This document shows positions 46,585-55,285 of a stretch of 64,000 nucleotides of DNA, piece by piece (the first letter of the stretch is position 1; every line of letters starts with the position of its first letter). A program made the translations under genes and the position numbers. The stretch lies in contig NZ_CAJHBI010000007.1 in NCBI RefSeq assembly GCF_904846605.1, positions 1-64,000 on the forward strand, in the 5' to 3' direction. The notes under the pieces were generated by a model. That model searched no databases. It worked only from the letters and a program-made list of their open reading frames with translations, and was not told the origin of the DNA. The stretch comes from Psychrobacter sp. 72-O-c. GTDB lineage: Bacteria > Pseudomonadota > Gammaproteobacteria > Pseudomonadales > Moraxellaceae.

Positions 46585-46693
46585 CTTAGTCATTCTAGTG
46601 AATCTTTCCTAATCCAGCGCAATCTAAATCTAACGCGACCTGCAGCAATGCTGTCTTTATTAATTTAGCCACTTTGCTGACTTGAGCCTATTT

Positions 46694-47653
46694 ATGATCG
46701 AAGCTATTCTATTTGCGATTACTATTGTTTTACCCAACCTGGCTTTAATGGGGTTGGGTTTTTTTATGCAAAGACGCGGTGAAACGAGTCAAGCTTTTAT
46801 CGATCAGGCCTCAAGCTTTGTTTTTAATTACTGCTTACCTTGTTTACTGTTTTTTAGCGTGGTCGATAGTAACGTAAACTATGCCAAGCAAATAATATTA
46901 ATAATTGCCGGTATTGTAGTGACATTTATTTTATTTATTGGTTCAGAGATTTATGCCAAACGGTTTATCAGTCGACCAGCTGATCAAGGTGTGTTTGTAC
47001 AAGGAATCTTTCGCAGTAACATGGCGATTATTGGCCTTGCAACCGTTGCCAATGCTTACGGGGAGCGGGGTCTGAGTATTGGTGCCGTGTATATGGGTGT
47101 CGTGACGATATTGTTTAATATCTTAGCGGTGATTACGCTTAGCCGCGTATCCAAAAATGCTGACGATACTTGGTCTAGTCGTAGCATTATGATTATCAAA
47201 AAGCTATTTACCAATCCGCTTATCCTCGCACTGTTGGCAGCGTTTGCTTACAAAGCATTGCCACTACCACCAATCCCAAGTGTTATTAATACTACCGGCG
47301 GTTTACTCGCGGCTGTTGCATTGCCGCTGGCACTAATCTGTGCGGGTGCCAGTATTGATTTGAAATCCATGCTGAGTCCTTCGGGGTTATCGATGCAAGC
47401 CAGTATTGGCCGTATTGTTATCGCGCCATTATTAGCCATTGCGGTAGGATTGAGTTTTGGGCTGACAGGCGTGCATATGGGCGTGCTGTTTTTGATGGTG
47501 GCATCGCCAACGGCAGCAGCCAGTTATGTGATGGCAAAAGCCATGGGTGGGAATGACATATTGGCGGCCAATATTTTAGCGTTTACTACAGTAGTTGGCC
47601 TATTCGGTATGGCAATCGGGGCGGCGCTCTTACGTGGATTGGGAATGATGTAG
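46694..47653 (+). CDS. AEC-family permease (auxin efflux carrier type)
   Basis: An inner-membrane transporter of about 319 residues with roughly ten helices. Features of the AEC/PIN-like family include VLPNLALMGLGFFMQRRG at the start, FRSNMAIIGLATVANAYG and the closing segment MVASPTAAASYVMAKAMGGND. Characterised relatives export or take up organic acids such as malate; the substrate here is unknown. I prefer ATG 46694 to the TTG at 46682. It marks the left border of the Wadjet-like locus. Confidence 0.88.
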   Translation: MIEAILFAITIVLPNLALMGLGFFMQRRGETSQAFIDQASSFVFNYCLPCLLFFSVVDSNVNYAKQIILIIAGIVVTFILFIGSEIYAKRFISRPADQGVFVQGIFRSNMAIIGLATVANAYGERGLSIGAVYMGVVTILFNILAVITLSRVSKNADDTWSSRSIMIIKKLFTNPLILALLAAFAYKALPLPPIPSVINTTGGLLAAVALPLALICAGASIDLKSMLSPSGLSMQASIGRIVIAPLLAIAVGLSFGLTGVHMGVLFLMVASPTAAASYVMAKAMGGNDILAANILAFTTVVGLFGMAIGAALLRGLGMM

Positions 47654-47777
47654 TTGCTAAAAGTGAACTCTTTCATGATTACAATAATAAATGTACTGGT
47701 GTATTTATTGTTCTATCGACTTTAATTAAGATACGAAGAGCTAAATACCCTGTACTCTGTAGTAAGTACTCATCCAG

Positions 47778-48368
47778 TCATATCTCTGGACAGTCGTTTT
47801 CCTCGTCCATAAACCTATGCTTGTTTTCCATCAATTCCTCAAAAAATGCTTTGCCTGCTTCTGATAACACGTAAGACTTACTGCTTGGCTTTTCCAGCAT
47901 GATGCCTCTATCAACCAGCAGGTTCTTAACGTGACCCATTAAGCTATCTTCGCTCTTACCAGTCATTTTGGATTTTTCTAAAATTTGATCAACGTAGGGA
48001 ATATTTGCCATCTCCTTAAAATCATCAGGGGTCAGGCCACCAGTATGTGAGGTGATTTTAGTTATAGAATGCCCATTAACCGTTAGGTATTTACCTATAA
48101 TTAAAAGAAGAAAATATACTTTCATACTAATATCAGTCTTACCATCCAACCCGCCTGCATCATTTAAGTAAACGTAGGTTGGCGTTTCTATTAACTCAAA
48201 CCCGTTCATTGCGTTATTCTTACGATAGTCTGCTAGGTTATCCATGATCTCAGTGAATAGAGGGTCTGCTATTGGCTCACCACTGTTGCTTAATTTATAC
48301 TTATTGATGATACGCCCATTCATTAGCTGGTCAAATATCTCAACGCTCAACCCCATGTTTATACTCAT
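47778..48368 (-). CDS. jetB: JetB/MksE-like KITE subunit
   Basis: A 196-residue protein, last of a four-gene operon. The plan fits winged-helix KITE subunits (MksE/JetB): an N-terminal helical part, then a C-terminal winged helix (SEDSLMGHVKNLLVDRGIMLEKPSSKSYVLSEAGKAFFEEL, about 140-180). KITE proteins bind the kleisin and stabilise the SMC motor. It starts inside the last codons of the upstream gene (ATGA-type overlap of 4 bases). Assignment rests on size, fold impression and operon position. It is the weakest single homology call of the four. Confidence 0.65.
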   Translation of the reverse strand: MSINMGLSVEIFDQLMNGRIINKYKLSNSGEPIADPLFTEIMDNLADYRKNNAMNGFELIETPTYVYLNDAGGLDGKTDISMKVYFLLLIIGKYLTVNGHSITKITSHTGGLTPDDFKEMANIPYVDQILEKSKMTGKSEDSLMGHVKNLLVDRGIMLEKPSSKSYVLSEAGKAFFEELMENKHRFMDEENDCPEI

Positions 48369-49738
48369 ATTGTTTCTTCCTCACGGTAGCTTAAGACTAC
48401 GTATTCGTAAAAATATTTATCGTCACTGATCTTGTTCCTAATGTTTTGCTGTTGCAGGCCACTAGTGTTTAATAGGGGTAACAGGTATTCGATGCCATAC
48501 AGAACGTCTATAAGGCTAAAGTCAGTAAGCGCCGTGAATAAGGTCTCGTAAACAAACAAATATATATCATCAACTCTGCTTGGTACATTTACCTCACACA
48601 TCAGGTCAAATATTCCATTGTCCTTTTCGTGCTCAATAATCATATCTATTGGCAGCGGCTTTAGTTTTGATGGTACAGGCTTGATTTGCCTAGTTTCTAT
48701 CTGCTCAAACCAAACCTTAAAGGCCAACATAGAATCATCTTGCGCTAGCGGGCGATTGAGGCGTTTATAGTAGCGTTGCTTGAAAGTGAACATACCGTCG
48801 AGTGAATTTAAGTGCTGCAACACTTTACTATCAGCGGTAAGGAATTTGTTTTGTGTTCGTCCATGTTGGAGCGGCTCAATGGATTTAACAAGGTCGCTAA
48901 ACGCACGCTCTATCACCATGAAGTACTTACGGTCTTCAGCAAGGCTACTTAGATAGTGCTGCAACCTTGCAGTGACTCTATTTAAGTCTTTATAGTAGGA
49001 AGTCACTGCCGTCTTGCGATACTGAATATAAATATCATCACTAATAAGCCCTTTTTCCTCGTAAAAGGCTTGTAGATTGTTCAGTGACTCAATAAACGTA
49101 TCACCACCTTGTAGTCGCATCGCGGGATCGATAAATTGTAAGCAAGGGATTATGTTTCTTGTGTACAGCTTGTCCGCTTTTTCGTATAACTCAATGATAG
49201 ATATTTCACACAAGCCTTGCTCTTTTTGGCGATATAAGTCGGATATTTCATCCACCTTGATATTTAGTACCTCAATGTTGCTTTTGATCTCACTTAGAAT
49301 GTCATTAATAATTTTATTAAAGTGAGTATAGGCTTCCTTGTAATCGTCGCTACCGCTTGGGCTTGCCATTATATTTTTAACCGTGGCGGATATATTCTGT
49401 CTAAAGTTGGCAAACTCTATACTGCTAAATTCACGACTGCGTGATATATCTAAAAAGACTAAAAAGTCATACATGGCTTTTGATAAGCCAATCATGCCTG
49501 AGTTTTTATTATCATAGACAAAAACATCACTTTTAACGAGAGCATCTAAGCTCATGATATTCTTTAAGGCGTTATCCTTATGTACTCTAACGATTTTCTC
49601 ATAGAACGCTAAATAAAGGCGTTTAGGAAACTCTGAGGCGGTGTTGTTTTCATGGATATAATCAATAAATTTAAAAAAATCGCGCTCAAAGCCATTAGCA
49701 AATATCTCTTTTATGATGGTCTGTCTATTAATTCTCAT
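48365..49738 (-). CDS. jetA: JetA/MksF-like kleisin subunit
   Basis: A 457-residue, predominantly helical protein with no catalytic motif, matching the size and position of the kleisin of Wadjet/MksBEFG complexes. The N-terminal part (about 1-100) resembles a winged helix region. The middle has long helices (about 130-290) suited to contact the SMC neck, and the C-terminus (about 390-457) is a compact helical domain. It overlaps the ATPase gene upstream and the KITE gene downstream by 4 bases each, so the three are translationally coupled. In described Wadjet operons this gene usually comes first; here it is third. Confidence 0.68.
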   Translation of the reverse strand: MRINRQTIIKEIFANGFERDFFKFIDYIHENNTASEFPKRLYLAFYEKIVRVHKDNALKNIMSLDALVKSDVFVYDNKNSGMIGLSKAMYDFLVFLDISRSREFSSIEFANFRQNISATVKNIMASPSGSDDYKEAYTHFNKIINDILSEIKSNIEVLNIKVDEISDLYRQKEQGLCEISIIELYEKADKLYTRNIIPCLQFIDPAMRLQGGDTFIESLNNLQAFYEEKGLISDDIYIQYRKTAVTSYYKDLNRVTARLQHYLSSLAEDRKYFMVIERAFSDLVKSIEPLQHGRTQNKFLTADSKVLQHLNSLDGMFTFKQRYYKRLNRPLAQDDSMLAFKVWFEQIETRQIKPVPSKLKPLPIDMIIEHEKDNGIFDLMCEVNVPSRVDDIYLFVYETLFTALTDFSLIDVLYGIEYLLPLLNTSGLQQQNIRNKISDDKYFYEYVVLSYREEETI

Positions 49739-52653
49739 ACGACACGCTCTTCAGCTGCATTTATTTTGCCAAAAGTGTCTATGTGTTGCGGTAAGATGTG
49801 CAGCACACAGTCAGGGTGCATTAAGTCTTTATTAAATTTGCAATAATCAATATTGATGTGGTTGCCAACGTGTTTACATACCGTACTTAACCGATGCGGG
49901 GTCGCACAGAATACAGAAAAGCCTGATTGAGCGATTTGGTTAACAATGGTTTTAATGTTTTTCTTATCCATGTCAGCAATTTCATCGACGATAACCGGCA
50001 TCATAAGGGTGCTGTCTTGGGCGAAAATCTTGCTAAGCAGTATAGAGATAATAAAAGAGGTCACTGTGCTTGTGGTGCCACCAGACTGTGGTTTTGTCTC
50101 TATATGACCGGTGTCTTCAACGTACTCGTAGCTGATAGATTTAATGAGATTAACCATCTTTAGCGTACGTTTTTTACTATGGCTATTCTCTTTGATGTAG
50201 CTTATGAGCGAAGTATAAAACTCAGGCTCAAGCAAGGTATCTTGGCTTAAGTCATACTTACTGCAATTGTCTAATAGATTTCTATAGTCGGCTTGAGTGG
50301 TTAGGCGCAGGCGTACCGCATCAAAGTTAGATACTTTATGGTGGCTCAGCTCTTTGTTCATCGAGGTTATTTCTGACTGTAGCAGCCTATTTGCATTCTT
50401 AATTTCCTCAAGCATGCTGGCAAGATAGGAGTGATGCTCATAAACTTTGTGCTTATAATCCTCTTTTTTGACATTAATTCTATCAAAAGTGTTCTTGTAC
50501 AGGGCTATAATTTCGCTGTACTCATGCAGGCCAGTTATTTCTTTGTGCGGATCAAGCTCTGCAAGCGGTATGTCTTCCATAAACCGTTGTAACTTAGTTT
50601 TATACTCAGCTTTCTCGGCAGCTAGTGCTATCGCTGTATTTTGTAGCTTCTCAAAATCTTCGAGCTCTAAGACTAGCATGCCATCAAGCGCCGCTAGATA
50701 CTGATCATTATCATCAGGGATATAGGTTGCTTGAAAGTGACTGTTGCTGCGTTCAATGATTTTGTCAGTAGTATCAAAGCGACGTATGAAGCTCTCAATG
50801 TCCTCTTTTTGCTTGCTGTAGTCAATATAAGCTGCATAATAACCATTTAACTTTTCTTGCTTGCCAGCGTGCTGATCGGTTACTAGCCCATACTCTTTAA
50901 TTACTTTATTTAACGTTGCTTTACTCTCAGTAATTTGCCGTTTAATGACTGCCAAACCACCTATGTCATCGATATTTAAGCTGATTTGATTATGCTCTGT
51001 TTTTAGTTTCTTTTTACTATGATCTGCCACTGAATTATTGGCGTCAGCGATAATATTATTGAGGCTGCCAATATCCTTCCTCAATTTCTGAATATGAGCT
51101 TGATTGTTAATTATTTGCTCTACATTCTTTTTGGCCTCTGTCTCTTTATCATAAAAGACAAAATTGGTATTAGCCAGCGTTGACTCTTTAAATGTTAATA
51201 CACCTTTCTCGCTATTGAACAACTCAGCAAAGGCATTAATAGTTTGAATATCACTATCCGACAAATCACAAATTAATTCTGAAAACTCGTTATTTAAGCT
51301 GATTAAAACACTGGCACTATGTTCAGGCAATTGACTGGTCGCCAGCAGACTTAGATTATCCTTTGCGGACTCTAAGCGTGCAAGGCGTGCGGTTAGGGTA
51401 CTGATCTCATGGGTTTTGGTTGTGATAGCTGTGGTCGCCTGATCTATATTATCAATGCTTTTTAACATAACAGACAGCTCTTCAAGACGAACTCTAAGCT
51501 CATACATAACCACATCAGCAGGCTTATTAAACTCACTTAATATGGTCTCAACGGCAATCTGCTTTTGCTCGTAGGTGTTGATGCTTGTCAGAAGAGATTT
51601 ATGCTGGGTATTGAGCTCGATAAGCTGAGTCTCAAGGTTTTTAACCTCGCCTGCTAGTGGGTTTTTCTTGGCATTAATGCTATTAAGTTGCTGGGTGATA
51701 TCGCCAAGTTTATTAGCTTGCTGTTCCTGACTACGGTTTAGATAGGTCTTTAGTACTTTAAATGACAGGCTGTAATCATTAACCGATGTTAGAATCGCAT
51801 CAAACTGACCTTTTAGAGTCTCGTAAACTACCTTGTTATTTTCATACTTTTTGAGCATCATGCCTTCATTGGTCAACTTCTCATAATCATCTTGAAGGGC
51901 GCTGAAATCAGCATCCATCCGCTCTTCATCTCGGCCTCGTCTCATCTCAATTATAGTAGCTATCGCTTGGGGCAAGGTGCTTTCCTCACCTTTACCTGAG
52001 TTAAAAGCCAGCTCAAAAATATTAATAAAAGCCTCTATTGAGGACTCTCTTTGGTCTTTGAGCGGCACTAAGCAGTATTTTGCATCTGCACTGGCGAAGT
52101 TACCAAATAGAATTTTAGACAGTATGGCCTTATCGCTGACGTGTAACCCTTTATAGGTCTTTACCGCACTGAGTATCGTTTGCACGCTAAGATTGGGCGC
52201 GAAGTAGTTGTTTTCGCTATCCCAGAATAAATGGCGGATATCATCAAACGGTACAGGCAGTAGCACACGGTTATACTCATAGTTGCCTGCTCGGTATAGA
52301 ATCATGCAAAACTCACCTGACGGATTTTTACCTTCCATAATCAAAAAAGAATTGGCAGTGGGAAAATAATACTCATATGATTCGTCACGCTTGAATTTTC
52401 TGCCTGACTTGCTGACAAAGTTAAACTTACTCTCACACTTATTAAAGTTAGTTTCAGGGTAGAGTAGTAGCTTGGTTGCCGACAGGCTTGCCGTCTTACC
52501 TAAGTTATTGTCACCGAACATCGCCAGATGATGATCAAGGGCCAGCTCTGTATAAGCATGGCTCGCTGAGTTAACAAATACAATTTGCTTGAGCACATAG
52601 CTGTAATCAAACTGCTCATCGTCTAATAGCTGATTAAAAGTATCAGTCGGCAT
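49735..52653 (-). CDS. jetC: JetC/MksB-like SMC ATPase
   Basis: A 972-residue SMC-type motor. The Walker A motif GDNNLGKT is at 47-54, preceded by a basic/aromatic strand typical of MukB/MksB heads. Two long coiled-coil arms (about 285-470 and 510-800, rich in K, E, Q, L) surround a hinge-like region. The C-terminal head has the signature SGGTTSTV (857) and Walker B MMPVIVDEIADMD (Asp890, Glu891). It is a little shorter than usual JetC (about 1100). It overlaps jetD by 11 bases and jetA by 4. The inferred role is DNA loop extrusion that feeds plasmid DNA to the JetD nuclease. Confidence 0.8.
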   Translation of the reverse strand: MPTDTFNQLLDDEQFDYSYVLKQIVFVNSASHAYTELALDHHLAMFGDNNLGKTASLSATKLLLYPETNFNKCESKFNFVSKSGRKFKRDESYEYYFPTANSFLIMEGKNPSGEFCMILYRAGNYEYNRVLLPVPFDDIRHLFWDSENNYFAPNLSVQTILSAVKTYKGLHVSDKAILSKILFGNFASADAKYCLVPLKDQRESSIEAFINIFELAFNSGKGEESTLPQAIATIIEMRRGRDEERMDADFSALQDDYEKLTNEGMMLKKYENNKVVYETLKGQFDAILTSVNDYSLSFKVLKTYLNRSQEQQANKLGDITQQLNSINAKKNPLAGEVKNLETQLIELNTQHKSLLTSINTYEQKQIAVETILSEFNKPADVVMYELRVRLEELSVMLKSIDNIDQATTAITTKTHEISTLTARLARLESAKDNLSLLATSQLPEHSASVLISLNNEFSELICDLSDSDIQTINAFAELFNSEKGVLTFKESTLANTNFVFYDKETEAKKNVEQIINNQAHIQKLRKDIGSLNNIIADANNSVADHSKKKLKTEHNQISLNIDDIGGLAVIKRQITESKATLNKVIKEYGLVTDQHAGKQEKLNGYYAAYIDYSKQKEDIESFIRRFDTTDKIIERSNSHFQATYIPDDNDQYLAALDGMLVLELEDFEKLQNTAIALAAEKAEYKTKLQRFMEDIPLAELDPHKEITGLHEYSEIIALYKNTFDRINVKKEDYKHKVYEHHSYLASMLEEIKNANRLLQSEITSMNKELSHHKVSNFDAVRLRLTTQADYRNLLDNCSKYDLSQDTLLEPEFYTSLISYIKENSHSKKRTLKMVNLIKSISYEYVEDTGHIETKPQSGGTTSTVTSFIISILLSKIFAQDSTLMMPVIVDEIADMDKKNIKTIVNQIAQSGFSVFCATPHRLSTVCKHVGNHINIDYCKFNKDLMHPDCVLHILPQHIDTFGKINAAEERVV

Positions 52654-53461
52654 ATAAATAGCTCTCTTGTTCGATGAATTTCATATGGTTACGGATTATT
52701 TCGCAGATAGGTTTAAGTGGTGGGCAGTCTTGGCCAATCGTGATTACTTTGCCTAATTCTTCACTGCCAAACTTTTCTACCACGCCAGCCAGTCGCTTCT
52801 GAATATCGCTTGGGTATAAAAAAACTTTAGAATTATTCATTGATAGGTTATATAGATTCTTAGCTATAGTCAGTCCACCTAAGTCAAAATCAAACAGCAT
52901 ATATAACGTATCGTATTTACTCAATAGTTTCTTATGTAGACTATTGGATATCTCATTACCTGCACCGAATATAATATCTAATTCATTATCTTTGGGTAGG
53001 TTGCAGTGTTGATATAGGAAGGTCAGTGTTCTCTCAATATAGATAAATAGCTGACGATTTTCTATAAGAAGGGCTTGCTTGGCAGGGTGGTGGGTGTGCT
53101 GGCAGGTGTGCTGATAATTACCATCAGTATCAAACAAAATCACTGCGGGATATTCTACTGATTTGCGAATAAGGAGTATTGAGCCATCAACCTTATAGTC
53201 ATGACTTCTGTTTTGTCGCGCCCCTGATACCCTGTCTTCATCCACACCAGCGGTAAGGCGACGTAATTCACTCATGAGGTCCTCATCAACACTTTTTATA
53301 AGATAGTAACCAAGTTTTGCTGTACGACTAGCGTTAATATTAGTTGGGCTATATCTGTGAGTGAGGCTTAACTGTTCAATCATTTTTTGTAGACGGCGAA
53401 GATTGACAGGTTTGCTATTATCAATACTATTAATAAACCTTTTTAAGGTTTTCACGCTCAT
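52643..53461 (-). CDS. jetD: JetD-like Toprim (DUF2220) nuclease subunit, compact form
   Basis: A 272-residue protein with the DUF2220 Toprim layout of JetD. It has the acidic residue in LLIENRQLFIYIE (Glu134), the IIFGAGNEI turn, the metal-binding FDFDLGG (Asp191, Asp193) and the late conserved FIEQES motif (about 262-267). All catalytic acids appear intact. The N-terminal region is short compared with described JetD proteins (about 350-400 residues), so the arm domain (DUF3322) is reduced or absent. It is the first gene of the operon, with AAAGGGAT before the ATG. In known Wadjet loci it is last. Confidence 0.75.
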   Translation of the reverse strand: MSVKTLKRFINSIDNSKPVNLRRLQKMIEQLSLTHRYSPTNINASRTAKLGYYLIKSVDEDLMSELRRLTAGVDEDRVSGARQNRSHDYKVDGSILLIRKSVEYPAVILFDTDGNYQHTCQHTHHPAKQALLIENRQLFIYIERTLTFLYQHCNLPKDNELDIIFGAGNEISNSLHKKLLSKYDTLYMLFDFDLGGLTIAKNLYNLSMNNSKVFLYPSDIQKRLAGVVEKFGSEELGKVITIGQDCPPLKPICEIIRNHMKFIEQESYLYAD

Positions 53462-54019
53462 GCTATATCCCTTTGTTTTTTAGTTATATTGTTGGTCAAT
53501 CAGAACGTCTTATTGGTTAGCATTAATATATTTTGTTATAGTCAATACCAAATAAAATAGACACACACGTAATTTCGCATGGTAGGTAAAAATTTTTCTA
53601 GCTTGCTATGTGACTGTGTCACTCCAGAGGCTGCGAAAATTTCTCCCAGCCATACTGTGTTCGTTTCAAAGCGGCTCAACTATATACCTAAACTAAGGTG
53701 TGTCATCAATTAAAACATTTTTAACCCTCATAATCTAATTAATGATAAGCCCTAGAATGTTCTTAATAATAATACGTGATTATTACCCTTCAATACCCAC
53801 TTAACGCCCCTTAATACCTGCACTATTCCAACCGGAAGACTGTTTCAAAGACAGCCATAACAAAAAGTAATTAATAACAAAAAATTCTGTTAGATAGTGG
53901 TTTAATATTTATCATAATGACGTTACTATGACTTTGATATTCAAGGCTGAGATTTTAATATTCAAGACTTGGGTTTTAATATTCAGGATTCTATATTCCT
54001 ATCGTCAAAAGGATAAGCT
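53462..54019. other. divergent spacer with MITE
   Basis: About 560 bp between the divergent Wadjet-like operon and the DadA-like gene. It holds the MITE copy 2 and presumably both promoters. No gene is seen. Confidence 0.6.
53537..53684. mobile_element. MITE-like element, copy 2
   Basis: A 148-bp unit starting TATAGTC and ending AACTATA, with inner arms CATGGTAGG and CCCAGCCATAC. It shares ordered blocks AATAAAA, GGTA-AAATTTTTCT, CAGAGGCTGC and TCGTTT with 17363-17518. It contains an extra perfect dyad GTGAC-TGT-GTCAC. It lies 76 bp upstream of the jetD start. Confidence 0.65.
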
Positions 54020-55285
54020 ATGCGCTACGAAGTTATTGTTATTGGTGCGGGTATGGTTGGCACATCGATTGCTTGGCACCTACAAAAGAATAACTCTAAA
54101 GTTTTATTGTTAGACAGAAAGCTACCAGGACTCGAGACCTCATACGGTAATGCTGGGCTGATACAGCGCGAAGCGATTCACACCCATCCCTTTCCTCGAC
54201 AGCTGACGGAGCTGGTAAGAGTCATGCCCAATCGTGGCACTGATATTCGCTATCGCTTGCCAGCTATCCTGCGTTATCATCAGGCGCTCCTCCAGTATTG
54301 GAAGTATTCTACGCCAGCCTCTGTCAAAAAAATAGAAGCAGAATGGCAGACACTGATTGCGCATTGTACCAGCGAGCATCAGACCATGATTACCGCATCA
54401 AACGCTGATGAGTTGATTAGACGTGATGGTTGGCTGCAGTTACATCGTTCTGAAGATACCCTTAAGATCGCCGCTGCCTTAGCCATAAGTGACCGTGAGC
54501 AAGGGGTTGAGCATAAATTGTTGTCCGTTGAAGAGTTAAAAGTGCTTGAACCTAATGCTAATTTTGATGGTTTTGTCGGTGCGATTCATTGGTTAAATTC
54601 TTGGCAAGTTTCCAACCCAAGTATGCTAGTAAAAGCCTATGCCAAAAATTTCGAAGACATGGGTGGTACGATACAAGAAAAAAACGTAAAAGAGATCACT
54701 CCCGATGACAGTGGTGATGGTCAGGGTTGGAAGGTAGTCACTGATAATGACACCTATTATTGCGATGATTTGGTAGTCGCTGCCGGTCCTTGGTCTAATG
54801 AGTTAATCAAACCATTGGGATATAATCTACCCTTATTCCCGATGCGCGGCTATCATCAGCACTTTAAAACCACTGGTAAAAATACAATCAATCACAGTAT
54901 GTTTGATATGGATAAAGGCTTCGTCATGGGGCCTATGCAGCAAGGTATTCGCATTACTACCGGTGCTGAGATGACTACGATGGATGCGCCAAAGAACTTC
55001 GGACAGCTGAAAACAGTACTGAAGCTTGCTAGAAAAATATTGCCATTAGAGGAAGCGGTAGAATCTGAGGCGTGGGCTGGCTCGCGTCCGTGTATGCCAG
55101 ATATGAAGCCGGTCATTGGTCCTGCGCACAAACATGATAAGTTATGGTTTGCCTTTGGTCATAGCCATCAAGGTTTTACTTTAGGACCTATGACCGGGCG
55201 CATTATGGAAGAGCTGATTCATAATAAACCTGTCATCGTAGATGTAGAACCGTTTAATGCGCAGCGTTTTTCTAAGACTAAATAA
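54020..55285 (+). CDS. DadA-like FAD-dependent amino acid dehydrogenase
   Basis: A 421-residue DAO-superfamily flavoprotein. VIVIGAGMVGTSIAWHLQKN (about 5-24) binds FAD, ETSYGNAGLIQ is typical of D-amino acid dehydrogenase small subunits (DadA), and SRPCMPDMKPVIGPA plus FGHSHQGFTLGPMTGR close the FAD site. It should oxidise amino acids to imino acids and feed electrons to the respiratory chain. AGGA precedes the ATG. The ridA gene 57 bp downstream fits, because RidA hydrolyses reactive imines. The substrate and stereo-preference cannot be read from sequence. Confidence 0.88.
   Translation: MRYEVIVIGAGMVGTSIAWHLQKNNSKVLLLDRKLPGLETSYGNAGLIQREAIHTHPFPRQLTELVRVMPNRGTDIRYRLPAILRYHQALLQYWKYSTPASVKKIEAEWQTLIAHCTSEHQTMITASNADELIRRDGWLQLHRSEDTLKIAAALAISDREQGVEHKLLSVEELKVLEPNANFDGFVGAIHWLNSWQVSNPSMLVKAYAKNFEDMGGTIQEKNVKEITPDDSGDGQGWKVVTDNDTYYCDDLVVAAGPWSNELIKPLGYNLPLFPMRGYHQHFKTTGKNTINHSMFDMDKGFVMGPMQQGIRITTGAEMTTMDAPKNFGQLKTVLKLARKILPLEEAVESEAWAGSRPCMPDMKPVIGPAHKHDKLWFAFGHSHQGFTLGPMTGRIMEELIHNKPVIVDVEPFNAQRFSKTK

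What the first reader, a model, noticed from the sequence alone, without database searches (positions are those of the whole stretch)
47778..53461. Wadjet/MksBEFG-like SMC operon in the unusual order D-C-A-B
Four overlapping genes encode a Toprim protein, an SMC ATPase, a helical kleisin-sized protein and a winged-helix KITE-sized protein. The ATPase keeps Walker A (GDNNLGKT), signature SGG and Walker B (VDE), and the Toprim protein keeps Glu134 and DFD. Described Wadjet loci run JetA-JetB-JetC-JetD; here the order is reversed in part, with JetD first. All four proteins are shorter than the reference ones. Together this suggests a divergent or undescribed type of plasmid-restricting system.
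Basis: partly seen in the sequence, partly recalled or inferred. Interest (0 to 1): 0.85.

Follow-up and report, generated by a model that had tools for sequence, protein, structure and literature searches.

The report
Reordered Wadjet-like plasmid-defence operon
A four-gene bacterial operon encodes a small DNA-loop-pulling SMC machine joined to a DNA-cutting enzyme, related to the Wadjet/Mks systems that destroy plasmids but forming its own branch with a rearranged gene order that current defence-finding profiles miss.

Summary
Four overlapping co-directional genes (minus strand, 53461 to 47778) encode a Toprim protein (272 aa), an SMC ATPase (972), a probable kleisin (457) and an MksE-type KITE (196). 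JetD's best structural match is MksG, JetA's is MukF, JetB hits Pfam MksE, and JetC aligns nearly full length with canonical JetC. PADLOC has no Jet model that matches JetA, JetB or JetC; JetD matches JetD3 weakly. The D-C-A-B order is a conserved trait: of 22 loci examined, 17 are complete D-C-A-B operons, three are cut by contig ends and two are damaged. JetC and JetD trees both make these one clade. In 63 more distant relatives D lies downstream of C in the 46 where both were found, upstream in none. The clade is rare and patchy, found only in Pseudomonadota, sometimes on large plasmids, often beside a WYL regulator, in some loci near restriction-modification, CBASS or Qat genes. I read it as an SMC loop extruder that activates a minimal JetD nuclease on foreign circular DNA: a new variant of Wadjet/MksBEFG. 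Plasmid restriction was not tested, types II and III could not be compared by tree, and a prior survey may already list these loci unnamed.

The parts
52643..53461 (-). jetD/mksG-like gene, 272 aa Toprim nuclease, first gene of the operon; lacks about 118 N-terminal residues relative to canonical (type I-like) JetD
   Evidence: PADLOC JetD3 4.3e-6; hhalign to canonical JetD 95.4%, global alignment starts at position 119 of that profile; model best match MksG 8b7f, Z 12.6
53060..53062 (-). JetD E134, invariant Toprim glutamate
   Evidence: invariant in 20 of 20 aligned sequences; coordinate computed from residue number
52883..52891 (-). JetD D191-F-D193, Toprim DxD
   Evidence: both Asp invariant in 20 of 20
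52664..52672 (-). JetD E264-Q265-E266, invariant C-terminal EQE, candidate counterpart of the paired glutamates proposed in MksG/JetD
   Evidence: invariant in 20 of 20; the MksG E349/E351 proposal is in passages of PMC10123090; equivalence is inference
49735..52653 (-). jetC/mksB-like gene, 972 aa SMC ATPase
   Evidence: hhalign nearly full length to canonical JetC 99.1%, to short MksB sets 99.9-100%
52492..52515 (-). Walker A GDNNLGKT
   Evidence: residues 47-54; N and GK[TS] kept in 20 of 20 aligned JetC sequences
50074..50088 (-). ABC signature QSGGT
   Evidence: residues 856-860; QS kept in 20 of 20, GG varies to NG, NS or TS in divergent members
49981..49989 (-). Walker B VDE
   Evidence: residues 889-891; DE kept in 20 of 20
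48365..49738 (-). jetA/mksF-like gene, 457 aa probable kleisin: winged helix, helical middle domain, disordered linker, C-terminal winged-helix-like element
   Evidence: model, Foldseek ranks 1-6 all MukBEF/MukEF entries, VIA top MukF Z 13.8; hhalign to JetA of three short A-B-C-D operons 92.7%, but only 16-23% against subsets of them
47778..48368 (-). jetB/mksE-like gene, 196 aa KITE
   Evidence: Pfam MksE PF21980 E 3.8e-13, 50.6 bits vs cut-off 27; hhalign 94-95% to MksE-type JetB sets

Best explanation
This is a four-subunit SMC-nuclease complex of the Wadjet/MksBEFG group, in a subtype of Pseudomonadota (nearly all Gammaproteobacteria) with the operon permuted to D-C-A-B (mksG-B-F-E). Shown: the gene content, motifs, conserved order and clade, and homology of JetB, JetC and JetD. 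Supported by predicted fold: JetA as kleisin. Inferred: JetC dimers bridged by the JetA kleisin and bound by JetB entrap DNA and extrude loops with ATP; on a small circular molecule extrusion runs to completion, and the stalled motor activates the JetD dimer, whose Toprim site (E134, D191, D193, with EQE 264-266) cuts the DNA. Linear and very large circles escape. JetD's missing N-terminal arm means that its contact with, or inhibition by, the motor must differ in detail from type I. In many relatives a neighbouring WYL regulator probably represses the operon until invasion.
For: Subunit homology. Folds: JetD to MksG/topo VI-A/JetD; JetA to MukF. Catalytic and ATPase motifs invariant. Conserved order and one clade. 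Purifying selection. Defence setting: a homologous gene beside the operon in 9 of 22 loci, the three scanned being WYL proteins; in hand-picked flanks, a type III R-M pair, a CBASS cyclase plus 4TM effector, QatA and a type I HsdR-like gene. Patchy: 3 of 36 in the genus; host has its own SMC. Two copies sit on circular plasmids of 320 and 599 kb, above the 50-100 kb range that Wadjet restricts (PMC10586767 passages).
Against: No activity was measured. JetA does not match canonical JetA by profile (0.4%), nor JetB canonical JetB well (6.5%); the JetA link to short operons falls to 16-23% when those are taken apart. JetA model confidence is modest (pLDDT 74.6, pTM 0.42), and unrelated helical proteins score only about one Z unit below MukF. 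The window's own copy has no WYL neighbour and its scanned flanks are a transporter and FAD oxidoreductases. Defence neighbours were picked by eye and not tested for enrichment against random flanks; other loci have metabolic-looking flanks. The nine WYL cases are not nine independent events (L100-L102, and L010 with L110, share flanks).
Confidence: 0.8

Rival explanations
1. A second chromosomal condensin of the MksBEF kind, with the Toprim protein as a processing factor, working in chromosome organisation rather than defence.
For: Short MksFEB-like operons in which no JetD was found are among the nearest JetC relatives; P. aeruginosa MksBEF organises chromosomes (PMC10586767 passages).
Against: Present in 3 of 36 genomes of the genus while the host has a full SMC (757 bits); JetD active-site residues are invariant; plasmid-borne copies and defence neighbours.
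Confidence: 0.1
2. A derived, rearranged member of an already described Wadjet type, most likely type III, that profiles miss because of divergence.
For: Best PADLOC hit of JetD is JetD3 (4.3e-6, then 2.2e-4 for a second JetD3 model). Types differ in operon organisation (PMC12647877 passage).
Against: No PADLOC JetA, JetB or JetC model matched at E up to 1, while two control loci hit all four type I sets strongly. No type III sequence could be obtained here for a tree.
Confidence: 0.12
3. A Lamassu-like SMC defence system acting against phage rather than plasmids.
For: Weak matches of JetC to LmuB (E 0.13) and JetB to LmuC (0.014).
Against: Four-gene make-up with MukF-like protein, MksE and MksG-like nuclease; no LmuA match.
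Confidence: 0.04

Closest known systems
Wadjet type I / MksBEFG (JetABCD; C. glutamicum mksFEBG, P. aeruginosa PA14, E. coli GF4-3)
   Same: Same four kinds of subunit; JetC homology over nearly the full length; JetD Toprim with the same kind of acidic site and best fold match to MksG.
   Different: Order A-B-C-D there, D-C-A-B here; JetC about 190 aa and JetD about 135 aa shorter by median; no PADLOC match for A, B or C.
Short Mks operons of Pseudomonadota (L029, L030, L012, L017, L088, L089 here)
   Same: Nearest JetC profile match (100% and 99.9%), similar subunit sizes, MksE-type JetB in L029, L030 and L017. L030 D is DUF7281 over the cut-off and L029 D under it; L012 D keeps DYD and EQE.
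   Different: Where D was found (L029, L030, L012) it is downstream of C (A assigned by position); separate in JetC and JetD trees.
Mostly Bacteroidota Jet operons (L112-L174 here)
   Same: JetC and JetD homology (99.6% and 97.2%); JetD about 286 aa; the one scanned (L160) matches DUF7281.
   Different: JetC about 1225 aa; D directly downstream of C in 46 of 46 loci where both were found, of 63.
MukBEF
   Same: JetA predicted fold best matches MukF.
   Different: MukBEF has no nuclease subunit (PMC7617805 passages).

Membership tests
Wadjet/MksBEFG group (broad) | SMC-type ATPase with Walker A, signature and Walker B | tested here: met
   20 of 20 aligned sequences keep Walker A GK[TS] and Walker B DE; hhalign to canonical JetC 99.1%
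Wadjet/MksBEFG group (broad) | MukF-like kleisin | tested here: met
   Foldseek ranks 1-6 are MukBEF/MukEF, best E 5.6e-4; VIA top MukF Z 13.8, 235 aligned, rmsd 9.3 across domains, and 7nyw_C Z 13.6, 156 aligned, rmsd 3.2. Weaker than the other subunits: helical folds reach Z 13 by chance and the profile link depends on the set used
Wadjet/MksBEFG group (broad) | KITE subunit of MksE/MukE type | tested here: met
   Pfam MksE 3.8e-13
Wadjet/MksBEFG group (broad) | Toprim nuclease JetD/MksG with acidic metal site | tested here: met
   MksG 8b7f Z 12.6, 151 aligned, rmsd 3.1; E134, D191, D193 invariant
Wadjet/MksBEFG group (broad) | Restricts or cleaves small circular DNA | not testable with these tools
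   needs transformation or in vitro cleavage assay
Wadjet type I | All four subunits match type I models | tested here: not met
   A, B, C none; JetD1 17.2 bits; controls L065 and L066 hit all four
Wadjet type I | Order A-B-C-D | tested here: not met
   D-C-A-B; A-B-C-D in the 12 canonical loci used, two of them PADLOC-typed
Wadjet type II | Subunits match type II models | tested here: not met
   only JetD2 at E 0.01
Wadjet type III | Subunits match type III models | tested here: not met
   JetD3 4.3e-6, partial (residues 114-205); no other type III model listed
Wadjet types II and III | Gene order and tree position relative to this clade | not tested
   no type II or III sequences obtained; papers not held
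Lamassu | LmuB SMC with LmuA effector | tested here: not met
   LmuB E 0.13, LmuC 0.014, no LmuA among the four

The most novel reading that the evidence does not exclude
A fourth Wadjet type: a monophyletic SMC-nuclease system with its own D-C-A-B operon, a minimal JetD that lacks the type I N-terminal arm, frequent WYL control, and therefore possibly a different way of holding the nuclease off and a different target range (for example excluding small rivals from hosts of megaplasmids, or phage circles).
Probability: 0.5. Interest if true: 0.7.

Novelty: new variant of a known kind. Interest (0 to 1): 0.55.

Why it matters
As of a 2023 review most Wadjet work was on type I (PMC10586767 passage); a type II structure has followed (entry 9qe0; citation). 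A separate lineage with a much smaller nuclease and motor would show which parts are essential and give a compact system for structural work. PADLOC models miss three of its four proteins, and RefSeq names all eight genes of the two annotated plasmid copies hypothetical protein, so defence surveys that rely on such models would undercount SMC-based immunity.

Tried and rejected
Sequence searches of PDB with profiles of the four proteins gave no MukBEF or Jet entry; JetC drew only weak hits, mostly to coiled coils (a Rad50 and an Smc fragment among them) and PtuA at 0.085. NCBIfam gave JetC only a sub-threshold SMC match. A first genome-contig scan with the single JetC protein found nothing; the alignment scan worked, on two peptide patterns, so its counts are lower bounds. 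Viral contigs: none with the first alignment, one locus with a 1218 aa JetC of the long kind with the second. Phage records: none at 1e-5. To place the clade against type III I searched JetD3 in 114 class and 299 phylum genomes and found none, with no control ringing, so this says nothing about absence. An empty-site test was inconclusive: the transporter gene was not within the upstream flank of the oxidoreductase in any of 28 other genus loci, and in the three genomes opened (G429, G004, G442) the two flanks lie in different places; no shared direct or inverted 10-mer between the operon borders. hhalign of JetA to canonical JetA (0.4%), to Bacteroidota JetA (0.2%) and to one MksF-position gene (4.8%) failed; canonical JetA against short-operon JetA also scores only 8.2%. 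The 92.7% link of JetA to three short operons dropped to 16.3% (two of them) and 23.0% (L012 alone). A first hhalign run turned out to align globally; the local rerun is. I doubted which gene is D in L012, since a 400 aa gene had a 52-residue match; motifs and profile scores favour the 308 aa gene used. In the JetC tree the grouping of the other non-canonical sets apart from this clade is not firm (92, unstarred, midpoint root, long-branch warnings). The JetA fold rows span mainly residues 94-290, so the C-terminal winged helix was not tested by fold search. JetD residues 1-91 are outside the listed matches; no Foldseek hit for JetD reached E 0.001.
Full report
Observation. The window holds four co-directional overlapping genes on the minus strand, 53461 to 47778: 272, 972, 457 and 196 codons, overlapping by 11, 4 and 4 bases. 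A close copy in genome G002 keeps all four genes; dN/dS is 0.05 (D), 0.16 (C), 0.08 (A) and 0 (B), so they are under purifying selection.

Subunit identity. In PADLOC, JetD matches JetD3 at 4.3e-6, with weaker JetD1 and JetD2 hits; JetA, JetB and JetC match no Jet model at E up to 1. Pfam gives JetB as MksE at 3.8e-13, over its cut-off. NCBIfam gives no Jet or Mks name, only a sub-threshold SMC match for JetC. As a positive control, the eight proteins of two canonical loci (L065, L066) hit type I models strongly. Family alignments compared by hhalign link JetC to canonical JetC (99.1%, nearly full length), JetD to canonical JetD (95.4%), JetB to MksE-type JetB of short operons (94.0 and 94.8%) and JetA to the gene in the JetA position of three short A-B-C-D operons (92.7%); 18 mismatched subunit pairs scored at most 2.4%. 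Against these: JetA to canonical JetA gave 0.4%, JetB to canonical JetB 6.5%, and the JetA link fell to 16-23% when the three short operons were split. JetA therefore rests mainly on its fold and its place in the operon.

Folds. The JetD model (pLDDT 88.8) has as its best match MksG of C. glutamicum (8b7f, Foldseek E 1.6e-3; VIA Z 12.6, 151 aligned, rmsd 3.1), then by VIA topoisomerase VI-A, Spo11 and P. aeruginosa JetD. Aligned globally, it starts at position 119 of the canonical JetD profile, so it lacks that N-terminal arm. The JetA model (pLDDT 74.6, pTM 0.42) reads as N-terminal winged helix, long helical middle domain, disordered linker and a C-terminal winged-helix-like element; Foldseek ranks 1-6 are all MukBEF or MukEF entries, and the best six VIA rows are MukF or Muk complexes too (Z 13.8 to 13.1), with an unrelated syntaxin at 12.7 next. 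Long helical proteins can reach Z 13 by chance, so I lean on the agreement of both programs and on coverage of the N-terminal domain.

Order and clade. A pattern scan of the genome collection found 255 relatives of JetC, of which the best 80 were kept. The best 17 (L095-L111) are all Pseudomonadota and stand apart from the rest by E-value (2e-61 or better against 3e-13 or worse). With the window, two plasmid copies and two further genomes this gives 22 loci. Seventeen are complete D-C-A-B operons, one of them (Photobacterium, L011) with two extra genes between C and A, and one (L098) with D starting at the very end of its contig. Three are cut by contig ends but fit the order (L105 and L108: D, C and an A frame that runs off; L111: C, A and a B frame that runs off). 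Two are damaged (L110: jetC broken, A and B gone; L106: jetC short and no A in the remaining 500 bases). Independent of position, D is directly upstream of C in 16 of the 17 scan loci (the other, L111, starts in C) and directly downstream of C in 46 of the other 63, upstream in none; 17 of the 63 could not be called. The D-C-A-B loci form one clade in a JetC tree of 48 rows (SH-aLRT 99), in a careful JetC tree of 31 rows (100/99) and in a JetD tree of 44 rows (98/97). One origin of the permuted order, with C and D inherited together, is the simplest reading; trees of A and B were not made.

Distribution. With the JetC profile, 6 of 369 class genomes matched at 1e-10 or better; four are of this clade (G000, G288, G168, G273, G168 being the damaged L106) and two are short A-B-C-D operons. 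In the genus, 3 of 36 genomes have it. The two Psychrobacter forms (window and G012) share only 34% JetC identity, whereas a neighbouring chromosomal gene is 84% identical in DNA, and they sit at different places, which points to separate acquisition. Copies occur on circular plasmids of 320 kb (Methylophaga) and 599 kb (Photobacterium); the eight jet genes there are annotated as hypothetical. No phage record holds a relative at 1e-5.

Setting. A homologous gene of about 274 aa lies beside the operon in 9 of 22 loci, divergent in eight and co-directional in L099; the three members scanned are WYL proteins. WYL regulators of the BrxR/CapW kind sit with and control defence systems (PMC9122601, abstract and passages; PMC9122588, start of abstract in the listing). 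Of ten flank proteins picked by eye, seven matched PADLOC models other than WYL: a type III R-M pair (L097), a CBASS cyclase with a 4TM effector (L102; homologous neighbours in L100 and L101 by clustering), QatA (L107), a type I HsdR-like gene and a candidate-defence gene (L103); two matched none and one was the WYL protein. L110 has an Mrr-NACHT protein nearby. Other loci, such as L095 and L096, have metabolic or transporter-like flanks by eye, and so does the window. Enrichment was not tested. The host has its own full SMC.

Mechanism. The known systems entrap DNA, extrude loops and cut once a small circle is fully extruded; circles above about 50-100 kb and linear DNA escape (PMC10586767 and PMC12287153, passages). 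The parts needed for this are present here with intact motifs, so I infer the same mechanism. The plasmid-borne copies, on replicons above that size, fit. What differs, by inference, is nuclease control, because the JetD arm is missing.

Comparison and novelty. It meets the structural features of the Wadjet/MksBEFG group that I could test, JetA least firmly, and fits no PADLOC type. PMC10123090 (passages) describes mksFEBG as the conserved order. PMC7617805 (passages) surveyed 254,733 bacterial genomes for consecutive MksB, F, E with an optional flanking MksG; the sizes here meet its limits, so these loci may be in its Data S1, which I could not open. Searches of the held library for a named fourth type or this order and for DUF7281 found nothing; most subscription papers are not held. 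I file it as a new variant of a known kind.

Noticed in passing
L112-L174 (for example L121:7235-13514): A widespread, mostly Bacteroidota operon family with JetC of about 1225 aa and D of about 286 aa downstream (a DUF7281 match in the one scanned, L160); I found no paper naming DUF7281 in the held library.
   Followed up: partly
L011:10929-11703: In the Photobacterium plasmid copy two extra small genes (a DUF5406 protein and an unknown 153 aa protein) sit between jetC and jetA.
   Followed up: no
L010:12932-17032 and L104:14573-17839: Large proteins with a PIN-TPR-GreABC domain follow the operon in Methylophaga and, two small genes later, in Shewanella; possibly another defence module.
   Followed up: partly
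L110:7672-9273 and L106:8938-11598: Two damaged copies: in L110 jetC is broken after about 533 codons and jetA and jetB are missing; in L106 jetC is short and no jetA follows within the remaining 500 bases of the contig.
   Followed up: partly
L012:5172-11737: Megaplasmid pMPPla107 carries a short A-B-C-D Mks-like operon; the 308 aa gene in the D position has DYD and EQE motifs but no Pfam match.
   Followed up: partly
window 46682-54020: The operon sits between mnmG/transporter and an oxidoreductase/RidA pair that lie apart in the three other genus genomes opened, so the window lineage has a rearrangement at this junction.
   Followed up: partly
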